In this document: positions 49,941 to 64,000 of the stretch, one piece after another | Position numbering within the stretch: the first letter of the stretch is position 1 | How the letters are laid out: each line of letters opens with the position of its first letter | Source of the DNA: Candidatus Thioglobus sp. | Lineage (GTDB): Bacteria > Pseudomonadota > Gammaproteobacteria > PS1 > Pseudothioglobaceae | NCBI GenBank assembly: GCA_028345055.1 | Contig: JAOMCO010000007.1 | Span: forward strand, 1 to 64,000 | DNA length: 64,000 nt | Direction: 5' to 3' | Translations under genes and position numbers: made by a program | Notes under the pieces: generated by a model | Told to the model about the DNA's origin: nothing | Databases searched by the model: none | What the model saw: only the letters and a program-made list of their open reading frames with translations

Positions 49941-51203
49941 TCACATAAAACGATTAATTGAAAATAAACTACTCACTGATAAATTCTGATCATCTGTTAA
50001 CAAATCACACACTAATTTAGCTGAAGTTGCTGCGTGAGTCAGGCCATAATGACCATGCCCACAATTATAAAACACTCTATTCATTTTTCGAGATTTAGAA
50101 ATTACCGGCAATGAGTCTGGCATCGAGGGTCGACTGCCCATCCAAAAATTTGCTCCTTCAACACTTAAACTAGGAAATAATTCTTGACTAATACGAGTAA
50201 TGGAATCGAAATAAGCTTGATTTGCTGGACGTCTAGGATTTGCATATTCAGCCCATCCTCCAATGCGAAGACCACTTCTCAAACTTGTTGCTACGATACC
50301 TCGATCAGCAAAAACAATTGGGATATCTATTTGAATATTTGGGGAAGGTATGGTTAGGTTATATCCTCTTTCTGCTGTCATTGGTAAAAAGTCACCTAAA
50401 GATTTTGCAAATGAAATTGAATCAATTCCAGCAGCTATAATTACTGCATCATATTTAAAACTTCCATTTTCGGCATCAATTAAAACAGAATTCAAACTTT
50501 CACTAATTCCATTAACTTTATTTTTGTAAAAAACAACTCCTCTCCCTTGAGCTGCGTTAGAAAGACTCTCGACTATATCTAATGGCTCAGTTACTTTTCC
50601 CCATTCATGAGATAAAAAGGCATGCTTAAATTTATTATTAACAGCTGGAGTAATTTTAGCGATTGATTCTTCATTTAATGATTCACTAGAAAAGCCTCTT
50701 TTACTTCTTTCATCCCAACTTTTCTTACTTGAATTAAAGCTTTTTTTGCTATCGTAGATAAATGCACAACCTCCATAGTCAACCATCTCACCAAGATCAT
50801 ATGAGTCTAATAGCGTTTTAGTATCCTTTAGAGAATTTTTACCAAGAAAACTTATGGCATCTGTTGCTTTTTGAAAACGACTTCCATGAGAAGTTAGTAA
50901 AAATTTCCAAAACCATGGAATTTGAGACCAAAAATCTTTAAATGGAACCTTTAATGGTGCATCAGAATCCATTAACATTTTCAATGCTTTAAAGTAAATA
51001 CCTGGAACACTAAGAGGAAAAATATCCGAAGCCCCAATATGGCCTGCATTAGCTTTTGATGCACCACTAATGCCAGGACTTGAAGGGTCATAAATGCTTA
51101 CATGGTAGCCTTTTTGATTCAAAGCACAGGCGCTCGAAATACCTACAATGCCAGCCCCAATTATTGCTACTGAAGATCCCAAAGGAATATTTGATGTCAA
51201 CAT
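49941..51203 (-). CDS. DadA-like FAD D-amino acid dehydrogenase, probably for cis-4-hydroxy-D-proline
   Basis: The 420-aa DAO-family flavoprotein has the FAD-binding VAIIGAGIVGISSACALNQKG near residue 12, the SGASKANAGHI segment, and the C-terminal FWMGSRPSMPDSLPVI and NCGHGHYGLTHAATS motifs of DadA-type dehydrogenases. It is the last gene of a five-gene minus-strand operon, 8 bases after a proline-racemase-family gene. That context points to oxidation of the D-hydroxyproline formed by the epimerase to pyrroline-4-hydroxy-2-carboxylate. D-proline or another D-amino acid remains possible. Electrons would go to the quinone pool as in other members; this is inferred. Confidence 0.8.
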   Translation of the reverse strand: MLTSNIPLGSSVAIIGAGIVGISSACALNQKGYHVSIYDPSSPGISGASKANAGHIGASDIFPLSVPGIYFKALKMLMDSDAPLKVPFKDFWSQIPWFWKFLLTSHGSRFQKATDAISFLGKNSLKDTKTLLDSYDLGEMVDYGGCAFIYDSKKSFNSSKKSWDERSKRGFSSESLNEESIAKITPAVNNKFKHAFLSHEWGKVTEPLDIVESLSNAAQGRGVVFYKNKVNGISESLNSVLIDAENGSFKYDAVIIAAGIDSISFAKSLGDFLPMTAERGYNLTIPSPNIQIDIPIVFADRGIVATSLRSGLRIGGWAEYANPRRPANQAYFDSITRISQELFPSLSVEGANFWMGSRPSMPDSLPVISKSRKMNRVFYNCGHGHYGLTHAATSAKLVCDLLTDDQNLSVSSLFSINRFM

Positions 51204-51211
51204 TTTTAAAA

Positions 51212-52246
51212 CTAACTTAGTAAGTCAAATGCATCACCCCAACAATCTGCAACTTTATAACCTAAAGGGTACGGATCACTCGGATCAACTCCAATTTGAT
51301 GAACTCCATGAATCCACCCTCGACCAGAAACTCTTGGAGTTATTCCAGATTTACCAGCAATAGTTTTTTTCTCTAGTATTTCTACTTTGAACTCGCTATC
51401 TATTATTGATCTAGCAATAAAACTCTGGCCAACTTCAGCCTGACCTTTTGCCTCCATTACTGCTAGACGCGCAGAATTACCAGTTCCACAGGGAGAACGA
51501 TCAATTCGACCAGGTGGGAGGATTGTTGCTCCCTTCATAACTCCATCACTATCATGACCAACAAACATTGTATATGAAATACCTTTTAAACCTTTAATCT
51601 GTGGATGTTTTATATCAACCTGATTATTGATGGCCCTATGAACTTTAGTCCCAATATCAACGAGTTTTCGAGCATTTTCAGGCAAGATTTTTAAGTTGAA
51701 TTGTGATGGATCAATTAATGCATAAAAAATACCTCCAAAGGCTATATCAACTATAACTTCTCCAAGCCCTTCAACTTCAATAATTGTATCAAGCTGGTCA
51801 GCATATGATGGAGTCATATCTAATGTCACTCGTTCACATTTTCCATTTTTACAACTAGCAACAGCTCGAACCAGTCCTGCTGGCGTATCTAGTGTTACAA
51901 CCGTTTTAGGTTCTATCATCTTAATCCTTCCAGTTTCGAGCAAAACAGTAACTAAACAAATACTATTTGAACCAGACATTGCATGTGCCTTATCACCTTG
52001 TAGAATTAAAAAACCTATATCAGCTTCTTTATGAATAGGCTCAAAAATTAGATTTGTTGACATCTGTGCATATCCACGGGGCTCAAACACCAAAAAACGT
52101 CGTAAACTATCATCAACTTGATTTATATAGTTCATTTTTTCTAGCATAGTCTTGCCAGGAATATCATTGGCAACACTAGTAACTATTCGTCCAACCTCAC
52201 CCTCTGCATGAGCCTCCACCATCGTTATAGTTTTTTTCCAGTGCAT
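51212..52246 (-). CDS. Proline racemase superfamily protein B (hydroxyproline epimerase or dehydratase), Ser/Cys type
   Basis: The 344-aa protein has the proline racemase fold motifs AHAEGEVGRIV at the start, MSGSNSIC near residue 90 and [12 protein letters not shown] near 250. In the classical racemase two cysteines act as the base pair; here the first is Ser91 while Cys253 is kept. Ser/Cys members are known in the superfamily, as are Thr/Cys trans-3-hydroxy-L-proline dehydratases. So activity could be 4-hydroxyproline 2-epimerisation, 3-hydroxyproline epimerisation or dehydration. It has a paralogue directly upstream (27-base gap) that shares the same replacement. Confidence 0.82.
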   Translation of the reverse strand: MHWKKTITMVEAHAEGEVGRIVTSVANDIPGKTMLEKMNYINQVDDSLRRFLVFEPRGYAQMSTNLIFEPIHKEADIGFLILQGDKAHAMSGSNSICLVTVLLETGRIKMIEPKTVVTLDTPAGLVRAVASCKNGKCERVTLDMTPSYADQLDTIIEVEGLGEVIVDIAFGGIFYALIDPSQFNLKILPENARKLVDIGTKVHRAINNQVDIKHPQIKGLKGISYTMFVGHDSDGVMKGATILPPGRIDRSPCGTGNSARLAVMEAKGQAEVGQSFIARSIIDSEFKVEILEKKTIAGKSGITPRVSGRGWIHGVHQIGVDPSDPYPLGYKVADCWGDAFDLLS

Positions 52247-52273
52247 TATTTCAAAATCTTAATTAAATGAACT

Positions 52274-53305
52274 TCATTGCTTTATTGGCCATGTATCTGA
52301 AAGACGATATCCATCTGGCCATGGATCTTCGGGGTCGAGCATTAATTGGTGAGTCCCAGTAATCCATGCCCTTCCACGAATTGAAGGGATAATAGCTTTC
52401 TTGTCACCCACCATAGTCTCATCAACTATGCTGCAGTCAAAACGGGAATTAATAATCGAACGACCTATCATCCGATCGCCTTTTTTTAGCTCTCCTTTTG
52501 CATAGAGAAGTGCCATCCGAGCAGAGCATCCAGTGCCACAAGGAGAGCGGTCTAATTTTCCAGGATCAATTACAACAGTATTTTTACTAATTTTAATGCC
52601 CTCCTCTTCAAATATAGGGAGTGTCATTTGGCAAAAAGAAATATGACTCCATTCAGAATTAGTTGGATGGGTAAAATTTAATTGCTGATTTGCAGCTGCG
52701 GTTATTTTTGAACCAATATCAGATATATCTTTAGCTTCATCAGGTTTAATTTCAAATCCAAGATCTTGCGCATTAATAAATACAAAACTATCCCCACCAT
52801 AGGCAGTGTCTACTTTGAGAGTACCTAATCCTTCAACTTCAATACTAATATTAAGCTGATCTGCAAAAGAGGCTACGTTATTGACCTCTATACTTTTAGC
52901 TTTTCCATCTTCACAGTATGCCTTAACTGGAACAAGTCCCCCAGGAGCCTCAAGAATAAATTCTGTTATTGGCTCATTCATCTCAATCAAACCAGTATCA
53001 AGCAAAACAGTCGAAACACAAATGGAGTTAGAGCCAGACATTGGTGGAGTATGTTCCGGCTCCATAACAATAAAACCTTGTTGAGCCTTTGGATTTTGGG
53101 CTGGTACTAGAAGATTTATGTGTTTAAAAACGCCTCCCCTTGGCTCATTTAAAACAAATTGCCTTAATTTTTGATCTTGGTCAATCCACCTAGCCTTCTC
53201 CCAGAGGCTATCTCCTTTTGGCGCCGCAACACCTCCAATAATTACATTGCCTACTTCACCCTCTGCATGGCATGAGACAATATGAATCAACTTATTGCTA
53301 TTCAT
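52274..53305 (-). CDS. Proline racemase superfamily protein A (hydroxyproline epimerase or dehydratase), Ser/Cys type
   Basis: A 343-aa paralogue of the following gene. Motifs are [11 protein letters not shown] at the start, [12 protein letters not shown] (Ser90 in the first catalytic position) and [12 protein letters not shown] (Cys256). The remainder also aligns by eye, including [18 protein letters not shown] and [24 protein letters not shown] at the end. The start codon overlaps the aldehyde dehydrogenase stop by one base (TAATG). Which of the two paralogues is the 4-hydroxyproline 2-epimerase cannot be told from sequence alone; retaining both suggests different substrates, such as 4- and 3-hydroxyproline. 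Confidence 0.82.
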
Positions 53306-54813
53306 TAAATATCTTCACTAATATCAATCCAAAGCGTTTTAGTTTCAGTATATTGATCATGCGCCATGAGTGAATTATCACGACCCCCAAAACCTGATAA
53401 TTTGTAACCTCCAAATGGAGTTGATATATCTCCCTCACCATAACAATTGACTGATACAGTTCCAGCCTGAAGAGCACGACCATATTTATGGGCCTTAGTA
53501 ACACTCGAAGTAAATAAAGAGGCTTGAAGTCCATAAGAGGTATCATTTGCAAGCTTAATGGCGTCTTCATCAGTCTCTACAACCATCATAGCAAATACAG
53601 GACCAAAAATTTCCTCCTTAGCAATGACCATATCTGAATTAACACCTGAAAATAATGTCGGCTCAATAAATAAACCATCACCTGAAGCAATTGAGTTACC
53701 GCCAGCAATAACTTCAGCGCCCTGCTCTTTAGCACTTTCAATATAACTTAAAATCTTATCATACTGCTCACGTGAAATAATCGCTCCAAGTTGATTTTCT
53801 GGATCCAATGGGTCACCGGTATGCCAGTCTGCCATTTTTTCCTTAACCTTTGAAAGCATCTTATCTTTAAGATTTTTATGAACAATTAATCTTGAATTAG
53901 CAGTACAATTCTGACCCATATTCCAAAGAGCCGCAAATACTGCATGCTCTGCAACACCATCTAGATTAGTAGCATCTGAAAGCACTACTGCAGGATTTTT
54001 TCCACCACATTCAAGTATAATTTTTTTCAAATTGCTTTGTCCAGAGAACTCTAGGAATAGCCTTCCAACCTCAGTAGAACCCGTAAAAGAAATCGCATCA
54101 ATGTCATGGTGACGACCCATTGGCTCTCCTACATCTGGACCCTCTCCTGGAAGCACGTTCAAAACGCCTGCAGGAATTCCTGCTTCACTAGCAAGCTCTG
54201 CAACACGCAGAGCTGTCATTGAGGTCTGTTCAGCTGGTTTAACTATAACACTATTCCCTCCAGCCAATGCTGGAGCAATTTTCCATGCTAACATCATCAG
54301 AGGAAAGTTCCAAGGCAGTACGCAACCCACGACACCTAATGGTTCACGAGTAATTAAACCTACTGCATCTGCATTTGCAGGAGAAACCTGATCATAAATC
54401 TTGTCTATAGCCTCAGCATGCCACTTAATAGTAACAATTGTTTCTGGAAGGTCAGTTAGCACGCACTCGCTAATTGGTTTTCCACTCTCTAAACTTTCAA
54501 GAACTGCAAGCTCTAATTGATTTTTCTCTATAAGTTCTGCTAACTTCAGCAACAACTCCTTTCGCTCGCTCGGATGTTTAGTAGACCACTCACCAGAATT
54601 AAATGCTTCTCTGGATACTTCTACAGCATAATCAACATCCTTATTATCACAGGCAGATACATTGGCTAAAACTGAGCCATCTGCAGGATTAATAGTTTCC
54701 ATAGTATTTCCAGCTTTTGTTTTTTGAAACTTACCATTTATAAAAGGATCAATTGGAAATTTTATTTTTGCAGCAATATCTGCATATTCATCTTTACTAA
54801 GAAGATCTGACAT
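53305..54813 (-). CDS. Aldehyde dehydrogenase, probably 2-oxoglutarate semialdehyde dehydrogenase
   Basis: The 502-aa NAD(P)-dependent aldehyde dehydrogenase has the [18 protein letters not shown] motif, FTGSTEVG cofactor loop, general base E268 (ILECGGKNP) and nucleophile C303 ([10 protein letters not shown]). EEIFGPVFA and the C-terminal [11 protein letters not shown] are typical. Sequence style is closest to the broad betaine/gamma-glutamyl-aminobutyraldehyde group. Position between the DapA-like gene and the two racemase-family genes makes 2-oxoglutarate semialdehyde, the last intermediate of hydroxyproline breakdown, the best guess. It starts 13 bases after the DapA-like gene. Confidence 0.85.
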
Positions 54814-54826
54814 TTATATACTCCTG

Positions 54827-55726
54827 TTAATTTAAAATTGAATGAAGTGAGGATCGAGTCTTATCTATAACTCCAATCATTTCCTTTCGAAGTGAGTCCT
54901 CAATAGGAAGTAATGGGAGCCTAACTTTTCCGGAAGGACGACCTTGCTGCTCACATCCTAATTTAACACATTGTAAAAACTTACCGCCCTGCTCTAAAGC
55001 CTTCATGAGAGGCATAAATGCAGCCATAAGGCGCCTTCCCTTTTCAAAGTCAGACTGCTTTCCTAGTATATCCATTAACTGGACACACTCTGATGGAAAG
55101 AAATTTGCTGTTGCACAAACCCAGGACTTTGCCCCCCAGGCTGCAAATTCAAGCACTTGTTCTTCTCCACCAACTGCAAGCTCAATTGAAGAATAGTTAT
55201 TAGACAGTAAAGGTAATCTAGAGTAATCACCACTAGACTCTTTGATAGCAGCAATCAAAGGATTATTGGCGACAATATCTAAAAAGTTTTCACCCATCTC
55301 AACTCCTGTTCTTCCAGGATAGTTATAAAGCATTATAGGTAAATCAGTTTTATTAGCTATCTCAAGCACGTGGTTAGCCAGCTCTTCTTCTGATGGCAAT
55401 GAATAAGGAGGAGCAGCTACTAAAAGTGATTTGGCTCCTGCATCAACTGCAGCTGATGAGATTTGTAGACATTCATCAACTCTAATATCATTTACTCCCG
55501 CCATAAATTCGACTCTACTGTTTATTCGCTCAGCTGCAAACTCAAATTGCTGAATTCGCTCCTCTTTAGAAAGAGCATAAAATTCTCCAGTTGAACCACC
55601 AACAATAATTCCAGCAACCCCATTCTCAATTTGCCAATCAATAACCTCTGCGTACATATCCCAATCAATTTCACCACTATCCATGAAAGGGGTAATAATA
55701 GGCGTATAAATTCCTTCAAATCTCAT
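54827..55726 (-). CDS. DapA-family lyase, probably pyrroline-4-hydroxy-2-carboxylate deaminase
   Basis: The 299-aa class I aldolase-fold protein has the family residues GGSTGE (43-48), Y136 in LYNYPGRTG and the Schiff-base lysine K162 in AAIKESSGD. It leads the minus-strand operon after a 228-base control region. Family members include dihydrodipicolinate synthase and the hydroxyproline-pathway deaminase; the operon partners favour the latter, giving 2-oxoglutarate semialdehyde plus ammonia. A lysine-biosynthetic role is less likely because no lysine genes are nearby. Confidence 0.82.
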   Translation of the reverse strand: MRFEGIYTPIITPFMDSGEIDWDMYAEVIDWQIENGVAGIIVGGSTGEFYALSKEERIQQFEFAAERINSRVEFMAGVNDIRVDECLQISSAAVDAGAKSLLVAAPPYSLPSEEELANHVLEIANKTDLPIMLYNYPGRTGVEMGENFLDIVANNPLIAAIKESSGDYSRLPLLSNNYSSIELAVGGEEQVLEFAAWGAKSWVCATANFFPSECVQLMDILGKQSDFEKGRRLMAAFMPLMKALEQGGKFLQCVKLGCEQQGRPSGKVRLPLLPIEDSLRKEMIGVIDKTRSSLHSILN

Positions 55727-55877
55727 TTATATTCTCCAATTAGAAATCTTTTAAAATGAAAATAATATACTAAATTAAGCTTTTAACGGGACTTTGTATT
55801 CAATTTAAGCTACTAAAATCTTTAAAGTTTATTTTATATAATTATCTAAAAAATTGAACTTTCATTTTTTGATTAAA

Positions 55878-55899
55878 AGTGATAAGATATCTCATCACT
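55878..55899. promoter_or_regulatory. 22-bp palindrome, candidate operator of the divergent hydroxyproline operons
   Basis: The halves AGTGATAAGAT and ATCTCATCACT are reverse complements apart from one position. It sits between the two divergent starts (dapA-like at 55726, binding protein at 55955), 56 bases ahead of the plus-strand gene. Length and symmetry suit a dimeric repressor such as a GntR-type protein, but no regulator gene is in the window. Confidence 0.6.
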
Positions 55900-55926
55900 G
55901 AATCAAGCTAATTAAAGTATTCAGTG
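55896..55926. repeat. Second inverted repeat in the divergent control region
   Basis: CACTGAAT (55896-55903) and ATTCAGTG (55919-55926) are perfect reverse complements with a 15-base spacer, ending 28 bases before the binding-protein ATG. It shares its first four bases with the end of the palindrome. It could be a leader hairpin or a second operator; the sequence does not decide. Confidence 0.5.
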
Positions 55927-55954
55927 TTTTGTTTAAACTTAATAGGAGAAATAA

Positions 55955-56770
55955 ATGAAGATGTTTTCTAAAACATTAGTGTCGCTTTTTGCAGCAGTAG
56001 TTATGCTCACTGGATCGTCAACTGCTTTTGCAGATAAGCTAGATGATGTAATTGATGCAGGTGTCTTAAGATGTGGAGTAGTTCTTGATTTTCCACCTAT
56101 TGGATATCGAGATGCAAATAATGAGCCAGCAGGTTTTGATGTTGAATACTGTAAAGACCTTGCAGCAGCTCTAGAAGTTGATTATGAAATTATTGCTGTG
56201 ACTTGGGCTGAACGCCTTCCATTAATTGTTACTAATCGTGGTGATGTTGTTTTTGGAGGTACTTCTGATACTCTATCCCGTGCTAAGACAGTTGGCTTTA
56301 CAATACCTTATGCAATTTATTATGCTCAGGCAGTTGTTGGTGCTGATAGTGGTATTGTTACTGTTGAAGATATGTACGATAAAAAAGTTGCTGCAGCTGT
56401 AGGAACTGTCCCTGAACAGGAATGGCTAAAAATTGCTGAAGAACTAGGAATTGAAGGCAATTATCAAGGCTATCAATCTGAGAATGAAGTGTTCTTAGCA
56501 GTAGCTCAAGGTAAAGCTCATGCAGGTATAACAACTAACACAACGGTATTGCCAATTACTCAGCAGTTTGATACGGTTATCGCTGGTCCACGTATGCCAT
56601 GGGGCACTGACTATACTTCTGTAGTCGGTCCACGTATGGATGTTACTTGGCTAAACTATCTTAACCTTTTTGTAACGCAGCAAGTTCGTTCTGGTCGTTA
56701 TCAAGAGCTTTGGGGTAAGTTTGTTGGTGGCGAAGCACCTGAATTACGCATTCCTGGTGTTTACTACTAA
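55955..56770 (+). CDS. ABC transporter substrate-binding protein (polar amino acid family)
   Basis: The 271-aa periplasmic protein has a signal peptide (cut likely after SSTAFA). The SBP_bac_3 domain starts DVIDAGVLRCGVVLDFPPIGYRD, then has GFDVEYCKDLAAAL and the GDVVFGGTSDTLSRAKTVGFTIPY segment that lines the amino acid pocket. A strong AGGAG ribosome-binding site lies ahead of the ATG. It leads the plus-strand operon and faces the hydroxyproline-type catabolic operon, so hydroxyproline or a related imino acid is the likely ligand. It is followed by a strong hairpin before the permease genes. Confidence 0.9.
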   Translation: MKMFSKTLVSLFAAVVMLTGSSTAFADKLDDVIDAGVLRCGVVLDFPPIGYRDANNEPAGFDVEYCKDLAAALEVDYEIIAVTWAERLPLIVTNRGDVVFGGTSDTLSRAKTVGFTIPYAIYYAQAVVGADSGIVTVEDMYDKKVAAAVGTVPEQEWLKIAEELGIEGNYQGYQSENEVFLAVAQGKAHAGITTNTTVLPITQQFDTVIAGPRMPWGTDYTSVVGPRMDVTWLNYLNLFVTQQVRSGRYQELWGKFVGGEAPELRIPGVYY

Positions 56771-56784
56771 TAGTTAATTTCTAT

Positions 56785-56812
56785 ATGGCCGGCTTGCCGG
56801 CCATTTTTTTTT
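56785..56812 (+). terminator. Terminator/attenuator between the binding-protein and permease genes
   Basis: ATGGCCGGC and GCCGGCCAT form a perfect 9-bp stem with a 2-base apical gap, then nine T. It lies 14 bases after the binding-protein stop. In ABC operons such hairpins raise binding-protein mRNA over the permeases by partial termination or 3'-end protection; that role is inferred here. Confidence 0.88.
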
Positions 56813-56821
56813 AAATCATTT

Positions 56822-57481
56822 ATGGATTATAACTTCCATTGGAGACCAGTATTTAAATCTCTCCCTGATCTCTTAGAGTCAGCATTATTAACGTTGGAGG
56901 TCGCAATCCTTTCGATGATATTAGGTATATTATTTGGTCTTGCACTCTCTCTAATTAGAATTAAAATGACAGGGCCTTTAAAATGGTTTGCTGTCTCATG
57001 GATTGAGCTTGCTCGAAATACACCAGCCCTATTACAATTATTTTTCTTTGGCTTTGGACTTGGTGCATTTGGTATTCACTTTAGTCCTTTTCTTATTGTA
57101 TTATTAGGCTTAACCTTTAACAACTCAGGCTACTTAGCTGAAAACTTTCGAGGTGGATTTAATTCTATTCCAGAGACCCAAATTAGAGCTTCTCTGAGCC
57201 TAGGAATGAATAGCTTCCAAACCTACACAAGAATAATAATTCCACAAGTCTTAAGGGTTGTATATCACCCAATGACTAATCAAATGGTTTGGGCTGTTTT
57301 AATGTCTTCTTTAGGGATGCTAGTTGGCTTCCGTGAACTCTCAGGTGAAACTCAATTTTTTGCATCTAAAACATATCGTATTTTTGAGTATTTTGCTGCA
57401 ACTGCAATAATTTACTACGTGATAGTCAAAATTATTCTTGGTCTTTCAAGATTAATGGCTTCACGACTATTTAAGTATTAG
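56822..57481 (+). CDS. Amino acid ABC transporter permease 1 (HisM/GlnP family)
   Basis: The 219-aa inner-membrane protein has about five helices. The N-terminus has SLPDLLESALLTLEVAILSMILG. The family signature region SWIELARNTPALLQLFFFGFGLGAFG is followed by the EAA-like loop (ETQIRASLSLGMNSFQTYTRIIIPQVLRVV) that docks on the ATPase. No clear ribosome-binding site precedes the ATG, which lies 9 bases after the T run of the terminator. It pairs with the next permease gene. Confidence 0.88.
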   Translation: MDYNFHWRPVFKSLPDLLESALLTLEVAILSMILGILFGLALSLIRIKMTGPLKWFAVSWIELARNTPALLQLFFFGFGLGAFGIHFSPFLIVLLGLTFNNSGYLAENFRGGFNSIPETQIRASLSLGMNSFQTYTRIIIPQVLRVVYHPMTNQMVWAVLMSSLGMLVGFRELSGETQFFASKTYRIFEYFAATAIIYYVIVKIILGLSRLMASRLFKY

Positions 57482-57491
57482 GAGAATCTTT

Positions 57492-58151
57492 ATGGAATCA
57501 GCTTCTACATACTTTTCAGGATTTAATATTAATGATTTATTGTATCTTGGTGAAGCTGCCTTAAGAACTCTATGGATCTCATTCTGGGCTATCAGTATTG
57601 GATCTTTTATTGGAATTTTTTTAGGATTAGCACTTAGCATTTCTAGGGTTATAGCATATACACTTGGGGCAGTTTTAGATGTATTTCGGTCTGTTCCACT
57701 AATTATTCAGCTAGTATTATTTTTTAATTTTGCCCCTATTATTGGTCTCAGACTTAACCCATTTGAAGCTGGCTTAATTGTACTTATTGTCTATACTTCA
57801 GCTTATGTTGCCAATGTTGCAAGAGGAGGAATTGAAGCTGTTGGAGACCCGATGAGAAGAGCTGCAAGAAGCTTAGGAATGACTTATTGGCAAGATTTAC
57901 GTTATGTTGTATGGCCAATTGGACTTCGTGCTGTATTTCCTGCTTGGGTGGGAGTTGCTTTAGGAGTTCTAAAGGATAGTGCATTGGTTTCAATACTTGG
58001 ATATATTGAGCTTTTAAAAGCTTCTCAAATACTTATGACTCGAACACAAGAGGCAATCTTAATATTATCAATTGCTGGTGCATTCTATTTTGCTTTATCT
58101 TATCCAATTTCTTATTATGCAACTCGACTTGAACAAAGGTGGTCTGAATGA
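57492..58151 (+). CDS. Amino acid ABC transporter permease 2 (HisQ family)
   Basis: The 219-aa partner permease has LYLGEAALRTLWISFWAISIG at the N-terminus, the VFRSVPLIIQLVLFFNFAPIIG signature, and the EAA loop DPMRRAARSLGMTYWQDLRYVVWPIGLRAV. The start follows an AGGAG ribosome-binding site 10 bases after permease 1, and the stop overlaps the ATPase start by 4 bases. Confidence 0.88.
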   Translation: MESASTYFSGFNINDLLYLGEAALRTLWISFWAISIGSFIGIFLGLALSISRVIAYTLGAVLDVFRSVPLIIQLVLFFNFAPIIGLRLNPFEAGLIVLIVYTSAYVANVARGGIEAVGDPMRRAARSLGMTYWQDLRYVVWPIGLRAVFPAWVGVALGVLKDSALVSILGYIELLKASQILMTRTQEAILILSIAGAFYFALSYPISYYATRLEQRWSE

Positions 58152-58873
58152 TTAAAATTACAAACCTACATAAACAATATGGTGAACTTGAAGTCTTAAA
58201 GGGTATTGACCTTGACGTTCCAAAAGGAGAAGTGTTAAGTGTTATAGGATCTTCCGGCTCAGGAAAATCAACATTACTATATTGTATTAATGGCCTGGAG
58301 CCAATCCAAAAAGGTCAAATTATTGTAGATGATATTGATGTTCATGCTAGTGATACAAACCTTAACTCAGTTCGCCAAAATATGGGAATGGTTTTTCAAC
58401 AGTGGAATAGCTTTCCTCATTTAACAGTTCTTGAAAATGTAGCGCTAGCACCAAAAATCGTTAGTAAACTTTCAAAGAAAGAAGCGCTAGAAGTTGCAGA
58501 AAAACAACTGCTTCATGTTGGACTTGGAGATAAACTTACTCAATATCCCTCTGCACTTTCAGGTGGGCAGCAGCAGCGTCTAGCTATTGCTCGAGCTTTG
58601 GCAATGGAACCAAAATGTATGCTGTTTGATGAAGCCACATCTGCTCTAGACCCTGAACTTGTTGGGGAAGTTCTTGATACAATTAGACTTTTAGCTGATG
58701 AGGGTATGACTATGATTTGTGTTACTCATGAGATGGGATTTGCTAGAGAAGTTTCTGATAGAGTGGCTTTTTTTCATGAAGGTAAAATTGAAGAAATTAA
58801 CCAACCAGAAGAATTATTTGGCTCTGCTAAATCTAAGTATTTACAAAAATTTCTATCAAAAGTTAAAACATAG
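58148..58873 (+). CDS. Amino acid ABC transporter ATP-binding protein
   Basis: The 241-aa ATPase has Walker A GSSGSGKST, a Q-loop in MVFQQWNSFPHLTVLENV, signature LSGGQQQRLAIARALA, Walker B CMLFDEATSALDPE and the H-loop MICVTHEMGFARE, as in GlnQ/HisP. It overlaps permease 2 by 4 bases (ATGA) and precedes the aconitase X gene by 29 bases. Confidence 0.93.
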   Translation: MIKITNLHKQYGELEVLKGIDLDVPKGEVLSVIGSSGSGKSTLLYCINGLEPIQKGQIIVDDIDVHASDTNLNSVRQNMGMVFQQWNSFPHLTVLENVALAPKIVSKLSKKEALEVAEKQLLHVGLGDKLTQYPSALSGGQQQRLAIARALAMEPKCMLFDEATSALDPELVGEVLDTIRLLADEGMTMICVTHEMGFAREVSDRVAFFHEGKIEEINQPEELFGSAKSKYLQKFLSKVKT

Positions 58874-58902
58874 GGCTATTAACTACTTACTGGAGTTTAG
58901 CT

Positions 58903-60603
58903 ATGGGAAAACTTTCAAATAATGAAGCCATTATCTTTGTACAAAATAATGTGGAAGGTGATATTGTAGTTTGTGATGAAGGGGTTAGTTTCTGGGGGGG
59001 TGTTGATCCTGACTCAGGAATAATTATTGATATTCATCATCCTAATTGTGGAGAGCAGCTTTCTGGAAAAATTGTACTTATGCCAACTTCTCGTGGCTCA
59101 TGCAGTGGAAGTGGGGTATTACTGCAGCTTGCGCAAAATGGAAATGCACCAGCCGCACTTATATTTAGAGAAAATGAAGAGATCTTAACTCTTGGAGCTA
59201 TGATTGCTGAAAGACTCTTTAACAAAAAAATTGCTATATTACGTCTTAAGCCTAACATTTATAATTTATTATCTTTAGAGAAATCTGCAAAAATTGATAA
59301 TCTCAAATTATATTTCTCAAGTATCTTAATTAATTTATATCAGCCTGATTTAAGTAGAATTTACTTGAATAATTCAGATAAAAAAATGTTGGCTGGCAAT
59401 CATGGTAAAGCCACAAAAATTGCAATGGAAATATTATGTTTGATGGCTGCTTCTCAAAATGCAGATAAATTAATCGATGTTTCTAGAGGTCATATTGATG
59501 GTTGTATTTTGGCACATGATGCTAATCTCAATTTTGCAGAAAAAATGCTTGATATGGGCGCGCGTGTTATTATTCCAACTACAATTAATGCAATTTCAGT
59601 AGATAGGGATAATTGGAAGTCGCAAGCTGTTGCTCCTGAACTGGGTGATAAAGCTAGCCGACTTGCTGATGCATATGTCAAAATGGGTGCTCATCCTACA
59701 TTTACATGTGCGCCTTATCTTTTAAGTGAAAAACCAACTAAAGATGAAGTTATTGGATGGTCTGAGTCAAATGCTGTTATTTATGCAAATTCTGTAATTG
59801 GAGCTCGAACTCAGAAGCATCCAGATTATTTAGATTTGTTCATAGCCATGACTGGGCGAACTCCAAATACTGGTGTTTATTTAGAAGAGAATCGAAAGCC
59901 TAGCTGCGAAATTAGAATATCGTTACCTTTGAAATTTGATGAGTCTATTTGGCCAATGATAGGTTGGTTGGCTGGCTATAAATCACCAAATGGAATTCCA
60001 GTGTTAATTGGTCTTGAAGATATTTCACTGAGTAATGATGATTTAAAAGCTTTATGTGCAGCATTTGGTACAACATCTGCATCTCCAATGTTGCATATTA
60101 AAGGGCATACACCAGAAGGTGAGCTCTCGAGCACTCAAGATGCTATTACTTCAACTATAAGGCCCAATGATTTATTAAATTTGTGGCAACAATTCAATTC
60201 TGGCAATAACAAGATAGATCTAGTTGCTATTGGGAGTCCACATGCATCTCCTGCTGAGTGTATGAAGTTTTTGAAATTGTTATTGGAAAAAAATCAAACT
60301 GTTGTTATTCCAACTATTTTGACTGTTGGGCGAGAAACTCTTACAAAATTAAGAGATCATGGGAATTTAAATCAACTTTCCAAATTAGGAGTTCAAATTA
60401 TTCCTGATATTTGTTGGTGCTCAATAACTGAACCAGTTTTTCCCTCAAAGACACAATCATTAATTACTAATTCTGGTAAATACGCTCACTATGGTGAGGG
60501 TTTGACTGGGCGAAATATACGGTTTGGAAGTTTAAGCGACTGTGCGATCGCTGCTTTAACTGGTTTTGTTAATGATGAGCCTCCTAATTGGATGAATTCC
60601 TAG
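58903..60603 (+). CDS. Fused aconitase X, probable cis-3-hydroxy-L-proline dehydratase
   Basis: The 566-aa protein joins the small AcnX domain (DUF126, residues about 1-140, with GVDPDSGIIID, HHPNCGEQLSGKIVLMPTSR and GSCSGSGVLLQLA) to the large one (DUF521, about 160-560, with GNHGKATKIAMEIL, SRGHIDGC, MGAHPTFTCAPYL, ANSVIGARTQ and HASPAECMKFL). Candidate Fe-S ligand cysteines are in these motifs. Characterised bacterial AcnX enzymes dehydrate cis-3-hydroxy-L-proline to pyrroline-2-carboxylate; archaeal relatives act on phosphomevalonate. The operon with an amino acid importer opposite hydroxyproline genes favours the first. The start has GGAG 10 bases ahead. No pyrroline-2-carboxylate reductase is in the window. 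Confidence 0.85.
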   Translation: MGKLSNNEAIIFVQNNVEGDIVVCDEGVSFWGGVDPDSGIIIDIHHPNCGEQLSGKIVLMPTSRGSCSGSGVLLQLAQNGNAPAALIFRENEEILTLGAMIAERLFNKKIAILRLKPNIYNLLSLEKSAKIDNLKLYFSSILINLYQPDLSRIYLNNSDKKMLAGNHGKATKIAMEILCLMAASQNADKLIDVSRGHIDGCILAHDANLNFAEKMLDMGARVIIPTTINAISVDRDNWKSQAVAPELGDKASRLADAYVKMGAHPTFTCAPYLLSEKPTKDEVIGWSESNAVIYANSVIGARTQKHPDYLDLFIAMTGRTPNTGVYLEENRKPSCEIRISLPLKFDESIWPMIGWLAGYKSPNGIPVLIGLEDISLSNDDLKALCAAFGTTSASPMLHIKGHTPEGELSSTQDAITSTIRPNDLLNLWQQFNSGNNKIDLVAIGSPHASPAECMKFLKLLLEKNQTVVIPTILTVGRETLTKLRDHGNLNQLSKLGVQIIPDICWCSITEPVFPSKTQSLITNSGKYAHYGEGLTGRNIRFGSLSDCAIAALTGFVNDEPPNWMNS

Positions 60604-60628: not shown

Positions 60629-60766
60629 AAGATCTATATTAAGCTAAATGATATATCAAGTGGTGCTCCAACTCGAGTGAATGGCAAGATGACTGCTTCA
60701 AACCTTCCAGAACTTGGGATTGAACCAAACTTTGATATGCTTGGAGATACAGTTCTTTCTTTTTAA
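60629..60766 (+). pseudogene. C-terminal remnant of an enolase-superfamily (mandelate racemase/MLE-like) protein
   Basis: After an in-frame TGA at 60626, an open frame of 45 codons without a credible start ends in TAA at 60764-60766. Its residues include [28 protein letters not shown] and the ending DTVLSF. This matches the extreme C-terminus of enolase-superfamily enzymes (pattern NG..T.P..PGLGIE.D...LG.PV). The barrel with all catalytic residues is gone. It lies 25 bases after aconitase X. Confidence 0.65.
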
Positions 60767-60781
60767 AAAAATTATTAATCT

Positions 60782-61609
60782 CTAATTTAATTTTCCAAAA
60801 AATGTCATTCTAGCTGATTCAGATAGCTGGACACCTGGACTTGAATTGTATGCTAAGACTGATAATATTCTAGTCTTACGCCCAATGGTTGGAGTGACGC
60901 GATGAATAGCATCCTTCCCTCTAAAAAGAACCAGTGATCCATTTTCCATAGCGAGTTTTTTTGGTTGGCTTTGCCCATTAATCAAGTCCAAAACTTGATC
61001 ATAGTTATTGTCATTATTTTTTGAGTTTCTGAAATCTCTTATATATTCAAATTCACCTCCTGCCTCAGGCTTCTGTATAAGCAAGGTGATTGCAAAAGAT
61101 GAGTTATCAAAGTGCCAACCAAGCTCCTGTCCCTCATTTGCATAATGAATGTTGATTGAAGATAGGTTGTCATAATATTTATAAAGCGCCTTCTCGTTAA
61201 GAACTGAACAAAGAAAATCTTTAAACTCTTCTGAATCATAAAGAGTTCTTAATGGTGAGAGAATAGGCACTTGATTATCGGTAATACAGCCCTTTGAAGA
61301 AACCACTGTTCTATTGCGTGCATGATTTAATGGGTATGATTTATCTAAAGGTTCTAAATAAACATTATGATTGTTGATGCAGTAATATGCATGATGTTCT
61401 TGATCAATTGCTTCAGATAATATCGACTCAATAGCACTAGAGTGAAGAAAATCTTTGAGAACTAAAACACCCTCTAATTCAAGAATTTTTTTGCATTCTA
61501 ATCTATAACTTTCATTTTCAATTGGATGCTTTAAATCATCAATCACACTAGATAATTTAATTGGAATTTTATTTGCACTATTAGTCATGACAAAGTTAAT
61601 TATATACAT
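60782..61609 (-). CDS. Predicted Fe(II)/2-oxoglutarate-dependent oxygenase of unknown substrate
   Basis: The 275-aa protein has a double-stranded beta-helix pattern. The iron triad appears as H166-x-D168 (GWHFDNSSFAITLL) and H236 (DAIHRVTP), with R244 or R247 for 2-oxoglutarate. The GGEFEYIRDFR stretch after the first strand pair recalls a family containing amino acid hydroxylases and halogenases; the intact Asp argues for hydroxylation. A second ATG at 61588 is an alternative start; neither has a ribosome-binding site I can see. It is divergent from the RoxA gene with 73 bases between, and its stop is 15 bases from the enolase remnant. Substrate not known. Confidence 0.75.
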   Translation of the reverse strand: MYIINFVMTNSANKIPIKLSSVIDDLKHPIENESYRLECKKILELEGVLVLKDFLHSSAIESILSEAIDQEHHAYYCINNHNVYLEPLDKSYPLNHARNRTVVSSKGCITDNQVPILSPLRTLYDSEEFKDFLCSVLNEKALYKYYDNLSSINIHYANEGQELGWHFDNSSFAITLLIQKPEAGGEFEYIRDFRNSKNNDNNYDQVLDLINGQSQPKKLAMENGSLVLFRGKDAIHRVTPTIGRKTRILSVLAYNSSPGVQLSESARMTFFGKLN

Positions 61610-61682: not shown

Positions 61683-62789
61683 ATGATTCATTTTGGAAAT
61701 ATTTCTCAAAAACAATTTCTTCAAGAGTACTGGCAAAAACAGCCACTTCTAATAAAGAATGCTCTGCCAAATTTTATCTGCCCATTGACTCCAGAAGAAC
61801 TAGCTGGATTATCTTGTGAAGAAGAGTTTGAGTCCAGACTTGTTATTGGATCAACAAATAACAATAAATGGAAAATCACGAATGGACCTTTTGATGAAGC
61901 TTCATTTTCTAAGTTACCAAAAAAAGATTGGACTCTTCTAGTACAAGGCGTTGACCGATATATTGAAGATATCTATCAGCTAGTTAACGAATTTGATTTT
62001 ATACCTCGTTGGCGATTCGATGATGTAATGATCTCGTATGCTTCATCAGGTGGAAGTGTTGGTCCACATTATGATCATTATGATGTTTTTTTGCTTCAAG
62101 GTTTGGGCAAAAGGCGGTGGATGATAAGCACAAAAGACTGCAATTTAGAAAATTATTTAAGTGATAATCCGCTAAGAATAATGAAGCACTTTAATGAAGA
62201 GCTCGAATGGGATGTTGAACCAGGAGATATTGTTTATATTCCCCCTAAAATTGCGCATCATGGAGTTAGTCTTGATGATCGATGCTTAACTCTTTCAATT
62301 GGATACCGATCCTATTCAATTAATGAAATGTATGAAGCACTAGACATGCCTCAAAAAAGTGAATCCAACATATATTTTAAAGATCCAATATGGGATTTAA
62401 ATCAACATTCTGCTGAAATACCTCAAATAGCAATTGATGCAGTTAAGACTTTTTTAAAAACCAAAATTCTTCCTGATGATTACTTTGGGTGCTTTGTCAC
62501 CAAGCTGGACTCTGAAGATCACAAAAAATTTAATCAGATAATTGCATCATATAAACAAGATCAAATATATACTGGTGTTACTTATGAACTAAAGCCTCTG
62601 TGCAGAATTGCCTACCAACATTCTAATGAAGGATTATTAGTGTTTGTTAATGGTGAAGTTTTTAACAACAGCAATATTGAGGATAAAATAATGATTGATT
62701 TTTGTAATACAAAAAAAATATCAACTAATAAAACAAATTGGATTTTAGCAAACAGACTTTCGTCACTTTTTCTTATTCAAGAACTTTAA
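61683..62789 (+). CDS. roxA: Ribosomal oxygenase RoxA (YcfD), L16 arginine hydroxylase
   Basis: JmjC/cupin-type 2-oxoglutarate oxygenase that hydroxylates an arginine of ribosomal protein L16 in E. coli. The 368-aa protein starts with FLQEYWQKQPLLIKNALP, has WRFDDVMISYASSGGSVGPHYDHYDVFLLQGLGKRRW in pieces that give H129 and D131, and PGDIVYIPPKIAHHGV giving the distal H192. The C-terminal half is the winged-helix-type dimer region of about 150 residues. Motifs and length fit YcfD well. Confidence 0.9.
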   Translation: MIHFGNISQKQFLQEYWQKQPLLIKNALPNFICPLTPEELAGLSCEEEFESRLVIGSTNNNKWKITNGPFDEASFSKLPKKDWTLLVQGVDRYIEDIYQLVNEFDFIPRWRFDDVMISYASSGGSVGPHYDHYDVFLLQGLGKRRWMISTKDCNLENYLSDNPLRIMKHFNEELEWDVEPGDIVYIPPKIAHHGVSLDDRCLTLSIGYRSYSINEMYEALDMPQKSESNIYFKDPIWDLNQHSAEIPQIAIDAVKTFLKTKILPDDYFGCFVTKLDSEDHKKFNQIIASYKQDQIYTGVTYELKPLCRIAYQHSNEGLLVFVNGEVFNNSNIEDKIMIDFCNTKKISTNKTNWILANRLSSLFLIQEL

Positions 62790-62799
62790 CTTTAAATAA

Positions 62800-64000
62800 C
62801 TAAAACAGGCTGGCTAATAACTTTGACAATGAATCGATCAACAACTTTGCATTTTCCTGAGTAAAGACCAAAGGAGGTTTAATTTTAATAACATTATTAT
62901 GTGGCCCATCAGTACTGAGAAGTATGCCAAGTTCTTTCAGTTTATTGGTAATCAACTTTGCCTTTTCTGTTGCTGGTTCCAGAGTTTTACTGTCTTCAAC
63001 CAATTCAATTCCAATAAATAATCCAGCACCTCGAACATCACCAATCAATGAAAATTTATCTTTTAATAAACACAACTCTGAGGTCAAATAATTCCCTACA
63101 TTCAGGGCATTCTGCTGTAAACTCTCCTGTTCGATTACATTGAGAACAGAGAGTCCAACTGCACAAGAAACTGGGTTTCCACCAAAAGAATTGAAATACT
63201 CCATGCCATTATTAAAGAAGCTTGCTATTTCATCAGTAGTTACAACGGCAGCTATAGGATGGCCGTTACCAAGTGGTTTGCCAATTGTGACGATATCAGG
63301 GATAACTTCTTGCATCTCAAAACCCCAATAGGCAGAGCCTACTCTGCCAAGACCCACCTGTACCTCATCACTGATACAAACTCCAGATGATGCTCTTACA
63401 TATTTATAAGATTCTGCTAAAAAATCATTAGGTAACGGGATTTGTCCACCACAACCTAAAATCGACTCAGCTATAAAGGTTGAGCCTCCACCAAACTTAT
63501 TAATTGCCTTCTGAACCGCTTGGGCATATTTTTTCCCCGCAGTTTTTGGGTTATTAAATTCTCCTCTGAATAAGTCTGGAATCGTAACAACTTCAACATG
63601 TTTTGACTTTCCCTGACCACCCTTACTATTAAATTTATAAGGACTGATATTGATTAGAGAGTCGGTATTTCCGTGGTAAGCATGATCTAGAACAATTGTG
63701 CTGTCGTTACCTGTATATGCTCTAGCCATCCTTAAAGCCAGCTCATTCGCCTCACTACCCGAATTTACAAAATGACAAATGGACAAGGTTTTGGGTAATT
63801 TTCTGCAAAGCTTCTCAGCCAACTCAACAATATTATCATGCAGGTAGCGAGTGTTAGTATTTAAAAGTTGATTCTGCTCGTGAGCCGCCTGAATAACATC
63901 AGGATGGCAATGCCCAACATGACTGATATTATTAACACAGTCCAAATACTCCTTCCCTTTTTCATCATATAAATATTGCCCCTTCCCCCTGAGTATTTTT
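62800..64000 (-). CDS. Class III aminotransferase / phospholyase (5' end beyond the window)
   Basis: PLP-dependent fold type I enzyme. The frame is open to the window edge; upstream of an internal TTG at 63945 it continues with [21 protein letters not shown], so the N-terminus is missing. Motifs are [62 protein letters not shown] and the PLP lysine in [15 protein letters not shown]. The LDHAYHGNT...SPYKFN pattern and VQVGLGR resemble the ethanolamine-phosphate / phosphohydroxylysine phospholyase group more than GABA or ornithine aminotransferase. In some bacteria such domains are fused after a kinase domain; that would lie beyond the edge. Confidence 0.8.

What the first reader, a model, noticed from the sequence alone, without database searches (positions are those of the whole stretch)
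49941..60603. Two divergent operons make a complete 4-hydroxyproline uptake and degradation locus, with a 3-hydroxyproline branch
The minus-strand operon has, in order, a DapA-family lyase, an aldehyde dehydrogenase, two proline-racemase-superfamily proteins and a DadA-like dehydrogenase. These cover epimerisation of trans-4-hydroxy-L-proline, oxidation of the D-isomer, deamination, and oxidation of the semialdehyde to 2-oxoglutarate. The plus-strand operon has a polar amino acid importer and aconitase X, whose bacterial members dehydrate cis-3-hydroxy-L-proline. In a streamlined, otherwise housekeeping region this is an ecologically informative accessory island, perhaps for use of algal or animal structural protein.
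Basis: partly seen in the sequence, partly recalled or inferred. Interest (0 to 1): 0.72.

Follow-up and report, generated by a model that had tools for sequence, protein, structure and literature searches.

The report
Hydroxyproline-use island with swapped enzyme
A small marine bacterium carries a gene kit for eating the unusual amino acid hydroxyproline; the kit is of a known kind, but it still shows the scar where one enzyme was replaced by an unrelated enzyme for the same predicted job, and some of its genes appear to move between species on their own.

Summary
Window 49941-60603 is an L-hydroxyproline cluster of a known kind, in a 74%-complete 1.31-Mb genome whose genus includes a record named Candidatus Thioglobus. 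Two corrections. (1) The two proline-racemase-like proteins differ: 51212-52246 is best read as the 4-hydroxyproline epimerase, 52274-53305 as a trans-3-hydroxyproline dehydratase, which in relatives stands alone beside a candidate pyrroline-2-carboxylate reductase. (2) That reductase is not in this locus; its usual neighbours are also missing from the assembly, so the 3-hydroxyproline branch cannot be completed here. New: behind aconitase X lies a 38-codon remnant (60647-60760) of the unrelated enolase-type cis-3-hydroxyproline dehydratase. One relative keeps the whole enzyme in that slot, so aconitase X seems to have displaced an enzyme of the same predicted function. Aconitase X and a neighbouring kinase/phospholyase pair (possibly for hydroxylysine) keep 68-84% fourfold-site identity with other species, where the median gene has 42-43% (two genomes measured): recent spread between species is the simplest reading. 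All functions are inferred; nothing was assayed.

The parts
49941..51203 (-). DadA-like FAD dehydrogenase, predicted cis-4-hydroxy-D-proline dehydrogenase
   Evidence: Pfam DAO 5e-50; no NCBIfam cut-off passed; place beside PRS2 in 7 of 7 genomes where both were read (G012 excluded, contig ends)
51212..52246 (-). PRS2, predicted trans-4-hydroxy-L-proline 2-epimerase, Ser/Cys pair
   Evidence: Pro_racemase 2e-116; nearest solved structures 4q2h and 4lb0 with the same Ser/Cys pair; no NCBIfam cut-off passed
52274..53305 (-). [quoted passage not shown]
   Evidence: NF047722 596 vs 550; nearest solved 4k7g; lone PRS1 beside Ldh_2 in relatives
53305..54813 (-). aldehyde dehydrogenase, predicted 2-oxoglutarate semialdehyde dehydrogenase
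   Evidence: Aldedh 1e-166; substrate inferred from context
54827..55726 (-). DapA-like lyase, predicted pyrroline-4-hydroxy-2-carboxylate deaminase
   Evidence: DHDPS 6e-56; substrate inferred from context
55955..56770 (+). family-3 solute-binding protein of the importer
   Evidence: SBP_bac_3 4e-25; specificity inferred
56822..57481 (+). importer permease 1
   Evidence: BPD_transp_1 7e-15
57492..58151 (+). importer permease 2
   Evidence: BPD_transp_1 2e-15
58148..58873 (+). importer ATPase
   Evidence: ABC_tran 1e-35
58903..60603 (+). [quoted passage not shown]
   Evidence: NF051439 831 vs 700; 51% identity to 7cnp, 12 of 13 active-site residues identical, Thr72 to Ser
60647..60760 (+). [quoted passage not shown]
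   Evidence: tblastn 74% over 38 aa, E 5e-15; NF043002 E 2e-8; 76% to the G028 enzyme, 41-48% over 27-28 aa to a second enolase subfamily of the genus
62800..64000 (-). class III aminotransferase-fold phospholyase (AT3), gene continues beyond the window to base 64080 of the contig; kinase gene (APH) follows at contig 64084-65133
   Evidence: Aminotran_3 3e-79, APH 1e-22; match the two ends of PRK06148

Best explanation
The locus is an accessory L-hydroxyproline catabolic island between guaB and a HalD-like oxygenase gene. The importer brings in hydroxyprolines (inferred). trans-4-Hydroxy-L-proline is epimerised by PRS2, oxidised by the DadA-like flavoenzyme, deaminated by the DapA-like lyase, and the resulting semialdehyde is oxidised to 2-oxoglutarate (all inferred from families and context). 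trans-3-Hydroxy-L-proline is dehydrated by PRS1 and cis-3-hydroxy-L-proline by aconitase X, both to pyrroline-2-carboxylate, which an Ldh_2-family reductase encoded elsewhere would turn into L-proline (inferred). In this operon aconitase X displaced an older, unrelated enolase-type enzyme of the same predicted function and left its tail behind (the remnant is shown; the order of events is inferred). Aconitase X and the nearby kinase/phospholyase pair have spread between species more recently than most of the island (inferred from measured fourfold-site identity).
For: Families and cut-offs. PRS1 alone beside an Ldh_2 gene in five genomes that hold no other racemase-family protein. Ser90 in 80 of 80 PRS1 homologues, second residue C 40, T 39, S 1 (3 of the 80 are of this genus, all C). 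Ldh2 goes with PRS1 or AcnX: 11 of 12 genomes against 3 of 17, Fisher p 1e-4, not corrected for relatedness. AcnX active site. Enolase-type enzyme in the AcnX slot of G028 (714 vs 500); its remnant behind AcnX in G000, G003, G010, G020. Fourfold-site identity against a background of 44 and 52 genes and in further genomes. In 77 named loci outside the genus AcnX (26) always lies with the full importer, and never with the enolase type (3).
Against: Nothing was assayed. PRS2, DadA-like, DapA-like and aldehyde dehydrogenase pass no curated cut-off. PRS1 has Cys where the solved relatives have Thr, and its Pseudomonas relative may also epimerise (PMC5144071). No reductase was found in G000. G015 has the reductase locus but no PRS1 or AcnX. 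With G003, AcnX (84%) is hardly above SBP (83%) and ATPase (81%), and the whole island is above the core genes, so the whole island may have moved in that pair. G002, whose contig ends about 200 bases after AcnX, shows no remnant.
Confidence: 0.75

Rival explanations
1. One reading: both racemase-family proteins serve the 4-hydroxyproline route, and only aconitase X serves 3-hydroxyproline.
For: Both carry a Ser/Cys pair, and a Ser/Cys member is a proven 4-hydroxyproline epimerase (PMC4113996, passages). The cluster that includes Ser/Thr PRS1 relatives is reported as functionally mixed, some members promiscuous (section 13).
Against: NF047722 cut-off passed by PRS1 only. Lone PRS1 lies beside an Ldh_2 gene in five genomes with no other racemase-family protein. 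The second acid/base residue is not conserved in the family.
Confidence: 0.12
2. PRS1 is bifunctional: dehydratase and 2-epimerase of trans-3-hydroxyproline, perhaps with side activity on 4-hydroxyproline.
For: PA1255 of P. aeruginosa is reported so (PMC5144071); that it is of the PRS1 type is my inference from cluster position. Cys256 could act as the second base.
Against: 39 of 80 relatives have Thr and 1 has Ser there. The epimerised product would have no known fate in the genomes with PRS1 and Ldh_2 only.
Confidence: 0.35
3. The high fourfold-site identity of AcnX, APH and AT3 reflects selection on synonymous sites, not transfer.
For: The SBP, a highly expressed type of gene, is also high (58-69%, 83% with G003).
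Against: Fourfold base composition is like that of guaB and pnp and predicts only 30-37% identity by chance. AcnX in G009 and APH-AT3 in most genomes lie at unrelated places. In G008 the pair lies between a tRNA-Ser gene and a copy of its 3' end.
Confidence: 0.1
4. The kinase/phospholyase pair degrades phosphoethanolamine or another amino alcohol and has nothing to do with hydroxylated amino acids.
For: Best solved relative is ethanolamine-phosphate phospho-lyase 6tor. The pair lies near PRS1 in 1 of 77 named loci outside the genus. In the genus 9 of 29 genomes have it, three of them with AcnX.
Against: AcnX is its direct neighbour in G009 and two genes away in G000; all three stand out by the same measure. 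Recalled, from no call: vertebrate homologues of such a pair are 5-hydroxylysine kinase and 5-phosphohydroxylysine phospholyase.
Confidence: 0.45

Closest known systems
L-hydroxyproline gene clusters of Pseudomonas and Rhizobiales (LhpA-L; PMC5144071, PMC4113996)
   Same: Same set of functions: epimerase, D-hydroxyproline dehydrogenase, deaminase, semialdehyde dehydrogenase, AcnX, trans-3 dehydratase, ABC importer. 32 of 77 named loci outside the genus hold the same importer near PRS1, 26 of them with AcnX.
   Different: The epimerase is a Ser/Cys protein; in the Pseudomonas loci read it was a Cys/Cys type. Other gene order, no regulator gene seen in the island, no reductase in the locus.
Aconitase X type I, 7cnp (PMC8184944)
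   Same: 51% identity over 553 residues, 12 of 13 named active-site residues.
   Different: Thr72 is Ser.
[quoted passage not shown]
   Same: PRS1 passes the cut-off; 63% identity to 4k7g; same catalytic Ser with Asn three residues on.
   Different: Cys256 instead of Thr, as in half of the homologues.
[quoted passage not shown]
   Same: Whole gene in the AcnX slot of G028.
   Different: Only a 38-codon tail is left in the window.
PRK06148, kinase and aminotransferase-fold fusion
   Same: APH matches model positions 4-328, AT3 584-1010 of 1015.
   Different: Two separate genes; the middle part is absent; neither reaches the cut-off for the whole model.

Membership tests
L-Hyp gene cluster | Genes of the four families of the 4-hydroxyproline route | tested here: met
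   substrates not proven, no cut-off passed by four of the proteins
L-Hyp gene cluster | Importer of the type found with AcnX in other clusters | tested here: met
   32 of 77 named loci hold all four importer genes
L-Hyp gene cluster | Pyrroline-2-carboxylate reductase gene for the 3-hydroxyproline branch | tested here: inconclusive
   not in the locus; not found in the 74%-complete assembly; usual neighbours missing too (no positive control in those calls); present in G002, G003, G010, G012, G028
[quoted passage not shown]
   831 vs 700; 12 of 13 residues, Thr72 to Ser
[quoted passage not shown]
   PRS1 596 vs 550; PRS2 372, not met
[quoted passage not shown]
   Ser/Cys; but the second residue varies in the family, C 40, T 39, S 1 of 80
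4-hydroxyproline epimerase | NCBIfam 4-hydroxyproline epimerase cut-offs | tested here: not met
   PRS2 245 vs 376 and lower for the other two models; it is filed as working like an epimerase, by nearest structure and context only
4-hydroxyproline epimerase | Two acid/base residues | tested here: met
   Ser/Cys as in 4lb0 and 4q2h
hydroxylysine kinase and phosphohydroxylysine phospholyase | Activity on 5-hydroxy-L-lysine and its phosphate | not testable with these tools
   homology only

The most novel reading that the evidence does not exclude
In this genus the use of hydroxylated amino acids is carried by small gene units that spread between species on their own: aconitase X, which displaced an older enzyme of the same function inside the operon, and a kinase/phospholyase pair that can enter beside tRNA and tmRNA genes. 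Together they would let a streamlined cell use both hydroxyproline and hydroxylysine, for example from diatom wall proteins or animal collagen.
Probability: 0.25. Interest if true: 0.6.

Novelty: new member of a known kind. Interest (0 to 1): 0.4.

Why it matters
The catabolic kit itself is known. Worth keeping are: a visible scar of one enzyme replaced by an unrelated enzyme of the same predicted function in the same operon slot, which supports both assignments without an assay; a comparative argument that separates a dehydratase from an epimerase in a family whose names are often interchanged; and a few genes of a streamlined marine lineage that stand far outside the background divergence, so that gene-by-gene transfer can be followed.

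Tried and rejected
Rejected: that PRS1 and PRS2 are interchangeable copies. That the whole island is a recent arrival throughout the genus: outside the close pair with G003 its genes other than AcnX and SBP are at 31-56% fourfold identity, near background. That the reductase is truly absent from this species: its neighbours are missing from the assembly too. That the HalD-like gene 60782-61609 belongs to the island: it is in 24 of 29 genus genomes at 61% identity or more, and in eight genomes whose site was read it lies beside guaB without the island. That the remnant 60647-60760 comes from the genus's other enolase subfamily.

Led nowhere: Rfam gave only the SRP RNA; sigma-70-like sites were fewer than in shuffles and terminator-like sites about as many. 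No paper held both Thioglobus and hydroxyproline, or HypA2 with hydroxyproline and dehydratase, in the one library searched. Reading motifs by pattern missed many loci and was replaced by alignment.

Rows dropped: genes under 55% identity or 60% coverage were left out before the medians, the ORFs were mechanical, and only parts of G028 and G009 were fetched; the background was measured for G000 against these two only, not for the other pairs. In one search hits under 50% identity or half the length. In one search three loci of the genus itself (L134-L136) and weak ATPase, SBP and permease hits. In the count, Ldh_2 hits of 33-55% identity were taken as other paralogues, and G001's hits were not compared (G001 has neither PRS1 nor AcnX).

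Not done: no structure was predicted; DadA, DapA and PRS2 were not searched by protein across all genus genomes; gene trees of AcnX, APH and AT3 were not built; PA1255 itself was not fetched.
Full report
What is there. The window is part of contig C52 (71,044 bases) of a 1.31-Mb, 54-contig, 74%-complete genome. Contigs of the same genus are identical to public records: G012:C26 to a contig titled Candidatus Thioglobus sp. PW4, G010:C47 to an uncultured gammaproteobacterium MAG, and G004:C11, in the 14 kb compared, to AG-319-D09.

The 4-hydroxyproline route. DapA-like, aldehyde dehydrogenase, PRS1, PRS2 and DadA-like genes run in one direction with gaps of at most 27 bases. These are the families of the known route: epimerase, D-amino-acid-oxidase family, DHDPS family, aldehyde dehydrogenase (PMC4113996, sections 8 and 9 read). 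The DadA-like, DapA-like and aldehyde dehydrogenase proteins reach none of the curated cut-offs shown, so their substrates are inferred.

Which racemase-family protein does what. PRS2 is nearest, among solved structures, to 4q2h and 4lb0, which share its Ser/Cys pair. A Ser/Cys member is a proven 4-hydroxyproline epimerase (PMC4113996, passages; that 4lb0 is that protein is my inference). PRS1 passes NF047722 (596 vs 550) and is nearest to 4k7g, deposited as 3-hydroxyproline dehydratase. Its second catalytic residue is Cys, where 4k7g, 4k8l and 1tm0 have Thr. Over the 80 homologues returned (the best 80 of more than 538), the first residue is Ser in 80 and the second Cys in 40, Thr in 39, Ser in 1; three of the 40 are of this genus. 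An epimerase needs two acid/base residues and a dehydratase one, so this fits a dehydratase. The P. aeruginosa protein PA1255 is reported as dehydratase and 2-epimerase on trans-3-hydroxyproline (PMC5144071, results section read; that PA1255 is of the PRS1 type is inferred from cluster position).

The lone PRS1 locus. In G004, G006, G011 and G025 a single PRS1 lies between an Ldh_2-family gene and a saccharopine-dehydrogenase-like gene; in G023 a PRS1 cut by the contig end lies beside the Ldh_2 gene. No other Pro_racemase protein was found in those five genomes. Ldh_2-family (MLD2) enzymes can reduce the proline ketimine (PMC4113996, section 13). The same locus lacks PRS1 in G003, G010 and G015, and holds a 32-residue PRS1 piece in G012. 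G003, G010 and G012 carry PRS1 in the island; G015 (67% complete) has none, which does not fit a simple exchange. Island and lone PRS1 proteins fall into two groups, each 100/99 (7 island and 4 lone proteins). Of 29 genus genomes, 11 of the 12 with a true Ldh2 orthologue have PRS1 or AcnX, against 3 of 17 without (Fisher p 1e-4, not corrected for relatedness). The three are G000 and G020, both incomplete, and G026, which has an ornithine-cyclodeaminase-family gene. Ldh_2 hits of 33-55% identity were taken as other paralogues.

The 3-hydroxyproline branch here. AcnX passes NF051439 (831 vs 700), is 51% identical to Agrobacterium AcnX 7cnp over 553 residues, and keeps 12 of the 13 active-site residues named in PMC8184944 (passages). 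The reductase is not in the locus. G000 has one Ldh_2 hit, a 38%-identical paralogue, and only a weak OCD hit. The two neighbours of the usual Ldh2 locus were not found either (these searches had no positive control of their own), so an assembly gap is the simplest reading. A proline dehydrogenase is present at a contig end.

A displaced enzyme. [quoted passage not shown] It is the only one of 29 genus genomes over that cut-off. In the window 38 codons from the end of such a gene lie between AcnX and HalD: 74% identity, E 5e-15, found again by the NF043002 scan at 60647-60760. The piece is 76% identical to the G028 enzyme and 64-67% to enolase-type genes of two named Ancylobacter loci, but 41-48% over 27-28 residues to a second enolase subfamily of the genus. 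Pieces lie behind AcnX also in G003, G010 (with a stop and a frame break) and G020. In G012 the model's last 33 positions lie at a contig start, where an intact gene cannot be excluded. G002's contig ends about 200 bases after AcnX and shows none; G009's AcnX is elsewhere and shows none. I read this as displacement of one enzyme by an unrelated one of the same predicted function. In 77 named loci outside the genus AcnX occurs in 26, always with the full importer, the enolase type in 3 (one only 43% identical), and never both.

Recent transfer. At fourfold-degenerate sites G000 and G009 agree at a median of 42.2% over 44 genes; AcnX (80.3%), APH (83.8%) and AT3 (74.1%) are the three highest, the next 57.7%. 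G000 and G028: median 43.2% over 52 genes; APH 74.7%, SBP 68.6%, AT3 68.4%, next 51.9%. AcnX is 80-84% in the four comparisons of G000 (G002, G003, G009, G010), against 38-59% for valS, guaB, pnp and aceE in G002, G003 and G009 (not measured for G010). Other island genes are at 31-56% in G002, G010, G012, G026 and G028, SBP at 58-69%; with G003 they are all higher, 59-83%, also above the core genes, so AcnX is no outlier there. Between all pairs, AcnX is 80-91%, APH 66-95%, AT3 68-97%, but the background of the pairs without G000 was not measured. The high-identity block ends at the gene limits on both sides for AcnX in G009 and for APH-AT3 in six genomes; in G026, where the pair has the same site as in G000, it is sharp on one side only. 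In G008 the pair lies between a tRNA-Ser gene and a partial copy of its 3' end: a 22-base exact repeat, against at most 11 in 100 shuffles. A tmRNA gene lies near the pair in G009, G022 and G028; no tRNA or tmRNA was found in the stretches of G000, G020, G023, G024 and G026. No repeat above the shuffles was seen in the seven other genomes tested. In HalD, identity of G000 to G003 and G020 falls from about 90% to 61-66% near 61200, as if a recombination end lay inside that gene.

The kinase/phospholyase pair. AT3 and APH match the two ends of PRK06148. AT3 is nearest to ethanolamine-phosphate phospho-lyase 6tor. That vertebrate homologues act on 5-hydroxylysine and its phosphate is recalled, from no call. 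In G009 AcnX and the pair are neighbours. Against a link: 1 of 77 named loci has the pair near PRS1 (Shinella L158), and in the genus it is in 9 genomes at 87% identity or more, three of them with AcnX (G005 has a 44-residue piece and a distant fusion protein). Diatom walls contain 3,4-dihydroxyproline and trimethyl-hydroxylysine (PMC4557024, passages), so diatom protein is as good a guess for the source as collagen; the authors of the AcnX paper argue for peptide antibiotics rather than collagen (PMC5144071). None of these was tested.

Verdict. A member of a known kind of catabolic cluster, correctly spotted, with one enzyme reassigned, one step missing from the locus, and two evolutionary observations that go beyond the finding.

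Noticed in passing
60782-61609 (-): HalD-like 2OG-Fe(II) oxygenase (Pfam HalD 2e-17), weakly like lysine halogenase structures but with His-x-Asp where they have His-x-Gly (that this marks a hydroxylase is recalled). Core in the genus, 24 of 29; substrate unknown.
   Followed up: partly
61683-62789 (+): JmjC_2 protein of very uneven similarity: 89% to G012 but 54-64% to others, as if replaced by recombination.
   Followed up: no
56785-56804 (+): Terminator-like hairpin of 8 pairs and a T run between the solute-binding protein and the permeases; terminator-like sites as a whole are not more than in shuffles.
   Followed up: no
L046:3221-3233 and G028:C1:149629-151107: G028 lacks the aldehyde dehydrogenase in its island; its nearest copy elsewhere is 51% identical with one in-frame stop.
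   Followed up: partly
G000:C34:38863-39961: A broken copy of a second enolase subfamily (two pieces, stops) in the window's own genome.
   Followed up: no
L040:17145-17732; L123 behind AT3: A CIA30-domain protein gene follows the APH-AT3 pair in G009, and nearly the same sequence follows it in G022; a tmRNA gene is next in both.
   Followed up: no
L124 behind AT3 (G023): A stretch that looks like the 3' end of a tmRNA gene lies behind the pair (by eye; ARAGORN found no tmRNA there).
   Followed up: no
L158: Shinella daejeonensis: AT3- and APH-like genes (52% and 27%) near PRS1, importer and Ldh_2 genes.
   Followed up: no
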